NCBI GenBank assembly: GCA_021814565.1 | Contig: JAKAIC010000009.1 | Coordinates: forward strand, 1 to 37,857 | Source: Actinomycetes bacterium | GTDB taxonomy: Bacteria > Actinomycetota > Actinomycetes > S36-B12 > UBA5976 | Reading direction: 5' to 3' | DNA length: 37,857 nucleotides | In this document: one piece after another, positions 189 through 1,855 of the stretch | Numbering within the stretch: the first letter of the stretch is position 1 | How the letters are laid out: every line of letters begins with the position of its first letter | Translations under genes and position numbers: made by a program | Notes under the pieces: model-generated | Told to the model about the DNA's origin: nothing | Seen by the model: only the letters and a program-made list of their open reading frames with translations | The model's database searches: none

Positions 189-423
189 GGAAGGGGAGCA
201 TTTCCAGCAGGTATCACCACGTTGCCAGCTTGTTGGAGGGCGCACCAACACCGCCACTGCATCCACCACCAGGCTCCGGCGCGGAGGCCGCGCCTGCGTA
301 GGCCGGCATGAGATGCCCACATGCTCGAATGCTCCCATATTGATCCACATTTGAACCGTCTTCGGGCAGTTGCCGAAACTTCCCATGTCCGGTGCAATGG
401 AGCGGCGTCCGCTTTCTCCTATG

Positions 424-1470
424 TCAAGCGGCGAGGGCGACGACTGGCATTTGTGCGGCGTGAGCGTCGTGGAGCAGTGCGTGATAGACGACGTCGGAGA
501 GTCGCCGTTTGAGGACGCGGATGGATTCGGACTTGCTGTCGCCGCCTGCTCGGCGGCGTTCGAGTAGTGCACGGGCTCCGTCGTGCGATTTGGCTTGGGT
601 GATGGCGATGCGGTGCAGGCAGGTGTTGAGCTGCCGGTTCCCGGTACGACTCAAGCGGTGCCGCGTCTTGTTGCCCGACCATACGGGTAGCGGCGCGGTG
701 CCGTTGTGTCTGGCGTAGGCGTCCTTGGACTTGAACCGGCGCACGTCGGCGGTCTCTGCGATGAGTTTGGCAGCGATCAGCGTGCCCACGCCGTGCACCG
801 CGAGCAGCGTCGGCGCCAAGGGTGTGATGAGTGCATCAAGTTCGGCGTCGATGGCCTTGATGTCGATCGTGAGCCGCTCGCAGCGGACGGTGAGGTCCAG
901 GGCGAGGCGGGCCACGAGGCCGTCTTCGGACTGCAGGCGGCGTGTCACTGCATGCAGGTGCTTGGGCCGCCAGATGCTTCTTAAGGGCACGTGCAGTGAC
1001 GGGTCGATCTCGTGCAGATGCCAACGTAACCTGTTGATAATCCTCGTTCGTTCCGCGACCAGGTGGTCCCGGTGCGTGATCAGGAGTTGCACCTCACGGG
1101 ACGGTCCGTCAAGCCTGGCGGTCGGCAGGTTTGGTTCTCGTAGGGCTGCTCTGGCGACAGCGAGCGCGTCGATGGGATCAGACTTGCCGTAGGTGCGTGC
1201 CGAGTCGCGGGAATGCGCCAAGAGTTTCGGTGGGACCCGAACGATGGTCTCTCCGGCACCGAGCAGGTCGCGTTCCAGGCGACGCGACAGTTGCCGGCAG
1301 TCCTCGACTGCCCAGAGGCGCTCGCTATCGAGCTTGCTGGCCCATTCGAGCAGGGCGAGGTCGTCTTCGCTGGTGGTGCCGGTGGTGTGTTCGGCGAGCT
1401 TGCGGCCGCGATCATCGATGGCGACGACAGTGTGGTTGTGCTTGTGAGCATCGATTCCGAGGATCACCAT
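424..1470 (-). CDS. IS110-family transposase (DEDD RuvC-like plus Transposase_20)
   Basis: The protein is 348 aa from the ATG at 1470 and catalyses excision and insertion of the IS110 element. The N-terminal RuvC-like DEDD domain starts GIDAHKHNH with D7, followed by E56 (AVEDC) and D98/D101 (SDPIDALAVARA). The C-terminal Transposase_20 domain has a helix-hairpin-helix (LLAVHGVGTLIAAKL, about 222-236), then PLPVWSGNKTRHRLSRTGNRQLN, where S265 fits the catalytic serine of this family. Length and motif order are normal, so it is probably intact. The ORF track starts 17 codons earlier, but MVILGIDAHK is the family's usual start and GGGAGACAGGG precedes it. In characterised relatives such as IS621 the transposase works with a bridge RNA made from the non-coding end, and that region is present just upstream here. 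Confidence 0.93.
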   Translation of the reverse strand: MVILGIDAHKHNHTVVAIDDRGRKLAEHTTGTTSEDDLALLEWASKLDSERLWAVEDCRQLSRRLERDLLGAGETIVRVPPKLLAHSRDSARTYGKSDPIDALAVARAALREPNLPTARLDGPSREVQLLITHRDHLVAERTRIINRLRWHLHEIDPSLHVPLRSIWRPKHLHAVTRRLQSEDGLVARLALDLTVRCERLTIDIKAIDAELDALITPLAPTLLAVHGVGTLIAAKLIAETADVRRFKSKDAYARHNGTAPLPVWSGNKTRHRLSRTGNRQLNTCLHRIAITQAKSHDGARALLERRRAGGDSKSESIRVLKRRLSDVVYHALLHDAHAAQMPVVALAA

Positions 1471-1499
1471 GATCCCTGTCTCCCTTCTGTTGGGTGGCA

Positions 1500-1660
1500 C
1501 GGGACCGGCCGGCAGGCACACATCAGTGGGGGCGACGCCACGCTCCTATCAAGCCATGCCGGTCGGTCTCAAGCCGATCCGGCCGGCCGCAAAAGGGGAC
1601 CAGGCCACGAAATACGGCAGGGAGTGGTTGAGCGAACCGGCCGGACCAACACCGCCGATC
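1500..1660 (-). ncRNA. Candidate IS110 bridge-RNA region (non-coding element end)
   Basis: In the IS110 group (for example IS621) the non-coding end upstream of the transposase encodes a structured bridge RNA with loops that pair with target and donor DNA. The region upstream of this transposase on the same strand has no ORF and is rich in inverted repeats. The octamer CCGGCCGG occurs three times (1505-1512, 1579-1586, 1637-1644). GGTCGG and CCGATC flank a 7-nt loop around 1561-1579, and the minus strand carries GGCTTGATAGGAGC. The octamers are self-complementary, so they could pair with each other or form stems. This is an inference from position and family. The RNA ends and the loops are not determined. 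Confidence 0.38.
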
Positions 1661-1721
1661 TTCACACTGACGAGAGTGGTGGATTTTCGGGCGTAGCGTT
1701 GTGGCGTAGCCGGGCGTGAAG

Positions 1722-1785
1722 GCCATCGTGCAACAGTCAGTGAGTACCCACTACGGAACTCACAAAGGACGTGTTGCACGATGGC
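1722..1785 (+). repeat. 14-bp perfect inverted repeat covering the IS256 transposase start
   Basis: GCCATCGTGCAACA (1722-1735) is exactly complementary to TGTTGCACGATGGC (1772-1785). The right arm contains the ATG at 1781. A second stem, GTGAGT (1740-1745) with ACTCAC (1758-1763), nests inside. In RNA the two stems would sequester the start codon. A likely role is translational restraint of transposase made by read-through transcription, as known for other IS families. That role is inferred. Confidence 0.75.
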
Positions 1786-1855
1786 TATGGACAATTCTGC
1801 CTTGCTTGAACTCTTGGACGCGCTGAAGGCCGCGGGTGTTGAAGAACGCATCCGG
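1781..1855 (+). pseudogene. IS256-family transposase, N-terminal remnant
   Basis: The frame begins MAMDNSALLELLDALKAAGVEERIR, which is the typical N-terminus of actinobacterial IS256-family (Mutator-type) transposases of about 400 aa. After R25 the frame continues with VLALHPEHSAGLCRS and ends at codon 71, with no likeness to the family. The DDE catalytic domain is absent, so the gene is broken by deletion or rearrangement after codon 25. The first 15 or so bases lie in the right arm of the 14-bp inverted repeat. Identification rests on recognition of the N-terminal pattern, without an alignment. Confidence 0.7.

What the first reader, a model, noticed from the sequence alone, without database searches (positions are those of the whole stretch)
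1471..1670. Non-coding end of the IS110 element is a candidate bridge RNA locus
An apparently intact DEDD/serine IS110 transposase is preceded on its own strand by about 190 nt without an ORF but with three copies of the self-complementary octamer CCGGCCGG and other inverted repeats. In studied IS110 members such as IS621 this end makes the bridge RNA that specifies target and donor. The neighbour is an IS256 fragment, so the guide may have directed insertion into an IS256 end.
Basis: partly seen in the sequence, partly recalled or inferred. Interest (0 to 1): 0.72.

Follow-up and report, generated by a model that had tools for sequence, protein, structure and literature searches.

The report
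Bridge-RNA IS110 inserted in IS256 end
This stretch encodes the guide RNA of a small jumping gene of the known IS110 kind, and the guide's sequence shows that it aims the element into the tip of another, unrelated jumping gene (IS256), whose relatives it appears to target repeatedly.

Summary
The finding is right. Window 412-1670 (minus strand) is a complete 1,259-bp IS110-group element. The 200 nt before its transposase fold as a two-loop bridge RNA, with strong covariation in 23 relatives (90.5% of cells paired; covariation 0.316 against 0.137 shuffled, 0/500). Across 40 elements each target guide fits its own flanks (left 8.1 matches against 4.1 for foreign pairs, right 7.7 against 5.3; 0 of 20,000 shuffles). 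The donor loop covaries with the element ends at three positions (42/43, 42/43, 43/43). The target is the left terminal inverted repeat of an IS256-family element: its tip lies at about 400-411, the rest at 1671-1855. A sister genome carries a 91% similar, uninterrupted IS256 with the same spacing. Two empty/filled comparisons in relatives fix the junctions. Nine loci of this clade abut IS256 bodies of two subfamilies (28% identical), with guides to match, always on the bridge-RNA side. The mechanism is known, and targeting of transposon ends is known from IS1111 members. New here are the IS256-end targets with matching guides, and that the two bases at the crossover usually differ between the ends. 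Expression was not testable.

The parts
412..1670 (-). complete IS110-group element, 1,259 bp
   Evidence: conserved ends TCAGTG... and TTGACATAGGAGAAAG in relatives with different flanks; spacing of the rejoined flanks equals that of intact IS256 repeats
424..1470 (-). DEDD/Ser recombinase, 348 aa
   Evidence: Pfam PF01548 and PF02371; alignment to ISCro4 and IS621 chains
1471..1670 (-). left non-coding end
1497..1651 (-). predicted bridge RNA; ends approximate, not mapped
   Evidence: fold -76.6 kcal/mol, z -2.6; covariation in 23 relatives
1578..1645 (-). target-binding stem-loop; stem arms 1645-1632 and 1590-1578
   Evidence: 9 of its 13 stem pairs show changes on both sides
1620..1628 (-). 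left target guide ACCACTCCC
   Evidence: 8 of 9 identical to left target 1680-1672; cognate test in 40 elements
1592..1600 (-). right target guide GTCCCCTTT
   Evidence: 8 of 9 complementary to 415-407 (415-412 is donor sequence); cognate test
1503..1568 (-). donor-binding stem-loop; stem arms 1568-1553 and 1520-1503
1543..1549 (-). left donor guide ATAGGAG
   Evidence: identical to right end 422-416; variable base agrees in 42 of 43 elements
1523..1527 (-). right donor guide ACTGA
   Evidence: complements left end TCAGT 1670-1666; covaries at two bases
422..427 (-). TTGACA, candidate -35 box that overlaps the stop codon; joins the left end in the circle
   Evidence: present in all 43 elements listed, 17-nt spacer to nAnnnT-like hexamer; no promoter-scan hit in the linear form
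1658..1663 (-). GAAGAT, weak candidate -10 box in the circle
   Evidence: only 3 of 6 consensus bases
1671..1855 (+). IS256-family left end (inner part of inverted repeat, leader, first 25 or so codons), truncated
   Evidence: 91% identical to 1676-1806 in the sister genome
400..411 (+). outer tip of the same IS256 inverted repeat, cut off by the insertion; outer limit approximate
   Evidence: GGCGTCCG matches the tip of intact repeats at the right spacing

Best explanation
The region 1471-1670 is the left non-coding end of an IS110-group element and encodes its bridge RNA. After excision as a circle, the TTGACA box in the right end is joined to the left end and drives the RNA (inferred). The RNA binds the recombinase. 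Its donor loop pairs with the joined ends of the element and its target loop pairs with both strands of an IS256 terminal inverted repeat. The recombinase then exchanges strands roughly 8-12 bp inside the IS256 tip, with the element's left end facing the IS256 body. Shown from sequence: the ends, the structure, the guide-target and guide-donor matches with covariation, and the IS256 target. Inferred by homology to IS621: transcription, RNP formation, serine-covalent strand exchange, circular intermediate.
For: Intact DEDD/Ser recombinase. Two-loop fold with covariation, 0.316 against 0.137, 0/500 shuffles, and collapse when slid. Cognate guides beat foreign ones in 40 elements, 0/20,000 shuffles on each side. 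Donor guides covary with the ends in 42/43, 42/43 and 43/43 elements. Uninterrupted IS256 repeats for the window's target and for cousins. IS256 on the left-end side in nine loci with clean ends (with for L043).
Against: No expression data. The -10 hexamer is weak, and no separate 5' stem-loop was seen. The two bases before the crossover usually differ between the ends (3 of 43 equal), unlike IS621. The window's own pre-insertion allele was not found; the sister IS256 is 91% identical but differs at the crossover bases.
Confidence: 0.93

Rival explanations
1. The conserved 200 nt is only a structured 5' leader that regulates the transposase, not a guide RNA.
For: It lies directly upstream of the gene, and leader regulation has been proposed for IS110 ends (PMC11208160).
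Against: A leader would not match the flanking host DNA of each copy on both strands, nor covary with both element ends.
Confidence: 0.03
2. The neighbourhood of IS256 is chance clustering of insertion sequences; the element has other targets.
For: IS elements cluster. Cousins do have other targets, such as an IS3-family orfA (L071, L006) and unidentified chromosomal sites.
Against: The junction falls at the same repeat position in independent loci, always with the left end towards IS256, and the guide reads the repeat sequence.
Confidence: 0.03
3. The element is a relic: the RNA was a working guide in ancestors, but this copy is no longer active.
For: Single copy in the genome; the IS256 target is itself truncated; one or two guide mismatches.
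Against: Open reading frame and catalytic motifs intact, stems fully paired, both donor guides match perfectly.
Confidence: 0.25

Closest known systems
IS621 and IS110-group bridge RNAs (PMC11208160, PMC11208158)
   Same: DEDD/Ser recombinase; RNA in the left end; two stem-loops with internal loops, the first matching both strands of the target, the second matching the element ends; TTGACA near the right end
   Different: targets IS256 terminal repeats, not REP elements; no CT core and usually no equal bases at the two crossovers; no separate 5' stem-loop seen; distant protein (IS621 chain E = 0.00031)
ISEc21 seekRNA (IS110 family, PMC11187229)
   Same: IS110-type element with an upstream non-coding region that determines a target-matching RNA
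   Different: different target; RNA length and processing not measured here; sequences not compared
IS4321/IS5075 (IS1111 group; Partridge and Hall 2003, cited in PMC11187229)
   Same: a DEDD element that inserts inside the terminal inverted repeat of another transposon
   Different: IS1111 group, victim Tn21-family; here the RNA lies in the left end and the victim is IS256

Membership tests
[quoted passage not shown]
   PF01548, PF02371; D7, E56, D98, D101, S274 from motif positions, aligned to ISCro4
IS110 family, IS110 group | left non-coding end much longer than right | tested here: met
   200 nt (1471-1670) against 12 nt (412-423) after the stop codon
IS110-group bridge RNA | conserved RNA fold with two stem-loops that carry internal loops | tested here: met
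IS110-group bridge RNA | first loop pairs with both strands of the target | tested here: met
   40 elements, 0/20,000 shuffles on each side
IS110-group bridge RNA | second loop pairs with both element ends | tested here: met
   42/43, 42/43, 43/43 agreement at three variable bases
IS110-group bridge RNA | 5' stem-loop before the two loops | tested here: inconclusive
   not predicted; start of the RNA unknown
IS110-group bridge RNA | promoter rebuilt across the circle junction | tested here: inconclusive
   TTGACA in all, 17-nt spacer, weak -10
IS110-group bridge RNA | RNA is expressed and bound by the recombinase | not testable with these tools
   no RNA data
IS621 subtype (not claimed) | CT core, equal in target and donor | tested here: not met
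   the two bases are equal at both ends in 3 of 43 elements; in the window CG against AG
IS1111 group | RNA in the right end | tested here: not met
   right end is 12 nt and the RNA fold lies in the left end
IS1111 group | subterminal inverted repeats of 7-17 bp | not tested
   not searched for separately

The most novel reading that the evidence does not exclude
A widespread actinobacterial clade of IS110 elements lives mainly on other insertion sequences. Its bridge RNAs are tuned to the terminal inverted repeats of at least two distant IS256 subfamilies (and, in a sister branch, to an IS3-family orfA), follow these victims by guide change, and recombine without a matching core dinucleotide.
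Probability: 0.45. Interest if true: 0.6.

Novelty: new member of a known kind. Interest (0 to 1): 0.45.

Why it matters
The clade gives natural series of guides and targets, with empty sites, for recombinases far from IS621. This makes guide retargeting, tolerance of core mismatch and RNA-guided parasitism among transposons directly testable. Insertion into a terminal repeat would probably disable the victim, so such elements may hold IS256 copies in check (inference).

Tried and rejected
Rfam, permissive search: no bridge-RNA family match. Viral contigs: no relative of the protein, and no copy of the TIR pattern tried; that pattern was written before the crossover was fixed, so it is a weak test. 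Other copies in the own genome: none. An N-terminal coding extension was rejected because of frame-breaking gaps and RNA covariation. A shared core dinucleotide was sought at the crossover and not found. L032, L049 and L084 have IS256 hits nearby but were not counted: L032 and L084 have rearranged left ends, and L049 lacks the left end. Regular expressions misplaced some left junctions; L039, L134, L142, L144 and L147 were corrected after inspection. L032 was left as it was and is one of the 40 elements and of the 43, where it is the one RD misfit. A few right-guide anchors (e.g. L046, L065, L086) stay off, which lowers the right-guide score. The guide shuffles treat elements as independent; related elements share guides and targets, so the test shows cognate specificity, not a count of independent events.

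Full report
Observation. The window carries an intact IS110 recombinase (1470-424, minus). Upstream lie three CCGGCCGG octamers at 1637-1644, 1579-1586 and 1505-1512. The genome holds one copy of the element.

Ends. DNA relatives with different flanks align to the window from about 1643 to 404. Alignments of both ends show a conserved left start [C/T]CAGTG and a right end TTGACA[T/G]AGGAGNNNN that overlaps the stop codon. This gives an element of 1,259 bp at 1670-412. Two comparisons with uninterrupted sites fix the junction. The intact IS256 in L101/L102 reads ACACCGTTAAAGAGATAGACCC, while L088 has ACACCGTTAAAG|CCAGTG...GAGCTAG|AGATAGACCC. The intact IS256 in L103 reads ACACCGTTAGCGAGATAGACCC, while L040, in another genus, has ACACCGTTAGCG|CCAGTG...GAGCTAG|AGATAGACCC.

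Structure. The left end folds at -76.6 kcal/mol (z -2.6) into two stem-loops with internal loops; the octamers form stem arms. On 23 relatives (A1) 34 pairs are kept in 90.5% of cells against 80.8% shuffled. Sixteen pairs change on both sides. The covariation score is 0.316 against 0.137 +/- 0.010, with 0 of 500 shuffles as high, and every slid version collapses. Related sequences inflate the shuffle control, but the slid control and the varied pair types (for example columns 111/159: GC 11, AU 6, CG 6) make chance implausible.

Guides. In the first loop the left guide ACCACTCCC (1628-1620) equals 8 of 9 bases of the left target ACCACTCTC (1680-1672). The right guide GTCCCCTTT (1600-1592) complements AAAG|CGGAC (415-407) at 8 of 9, where AAAG is donor sequence (coordinates). 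Over 40 elements with distinct guides the left guide fits its own target with 8.10 matches against 4.06 for foreign targets, and the right with 7.67 against 5.31; none of 20,000 shuffles reached either sum. In the second loop the left donor guide and the right end agree at the variable base in 42 of 43 elements (T-T 30, G-G 12). The right donor guide complements the left end at two variable bases (T-A 30 and C-G 12, with L032 as the one misfit, whose left end is rearranged; G-C 38 and A-T 5). This is the anatomy of IS621 (PMC11208160).

Target. The DNA next to the left end (1671-1855) is the left end of an IS256-family element. A same-genus genome has an intact IS256, 91% identical over 1676-1806, with inverted repeats GGGGCGTCCCGTGGGGTGGTGGATTTTC and GGATGACGTCCCGTTGAGTGGTGGGTTTTC. 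Joining the window's flanks gives GGCGTCCG+CGAGAGTGGTGGATTTTC, with the same spacing. IS256 bodies lie just beyond the left end in nine loci with clean ends (W, L034, L039, L040, L041, L043, L044, L046, L088). Either repeat can be hit, but IS256 is always on the same side of IS110, as expected if an inverted repeat is the target. The bodies belong to two IS256 subfamilies about 28% identical in transposase, and the guides read CCACTC or CCGTTA accordingly (L088 has a one-base bulge in its guide). The protein tree groups these target classes with a few changes. Cousins read other targets: two lie in an IS3-family orfA, recognised here by its motif ANEILKLASAFFA|RELDPRH.

Difference from IS621. 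In IS621 target and donor share a CT core and cleavage follows it (PMC11208158). Here the two bases before the crossover are the same at both ends in only 3 of 43 elements. The L040/L103 pair shows a target CG and a donor AG. This is unexplained. It may mean a relaxed core or a one-base core.

Literature. In the library held, no paper on IS110 elements in IS256 repeats was found. Targeting of Tn21-family repeats by the IS1111 members IS4321/IS5075 is established (Partridge and Hall 2003, cited in PMC11187229). The library lacks most subscription papers, so novelty of the target is provisional.

Verdict. A bridge-RNA locus of a new IS110-group member, with an IS256 terminal repeat as target. 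The mechanism is known; the target series and the unmatched core are the points of interest. Transcription and activity remain untested.

Noticed in passing
one search set; e.g. L040 against L103, window 1672-1671 against 413-412: The two bases before the crossover differ between the two element ends in 40 of 43 elements, unlike the shared CT core of IS621.
   Followed up: partly
L138 (upstream of its left junction): The left flank repeats the first 78 bp of the same element at 100%, ending just after the left target guide. This fits an insertion into another copy's own guide DNA followed by a deletion between copies.
   Followed up: partly
L071, L006: Cousin IS110s lie inside an IS3-family orfA at the motif ANEILKxASAFFA, with left guides that match it.
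   Followed up: partly
L104 (Rhodococcus pyridinivorans pNAPH): A different, longer IS110 (annotated 1575-2846) is inserted in the same IS256 subfamily's right inverted repeat, so two IS110 lineages hit this repeat.
   Followed up: partly
window 1722-1785: The IS256 leader holds a perfect 14-bp inverted repeat (1722-1735/1772-1785) that covers the start codon; a similar strong hairpin is predicted in L097, L098, L099 and L106. It may shield the start codon from read-through transcripts.
   Followed up: partly
mycobacterial cousins L117-L155: Many right flanks read nCATG or similar right after the element, with right guides ending CATGCGTTTT, so some cousins may favour sites near gene starts.
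   Followed up: no
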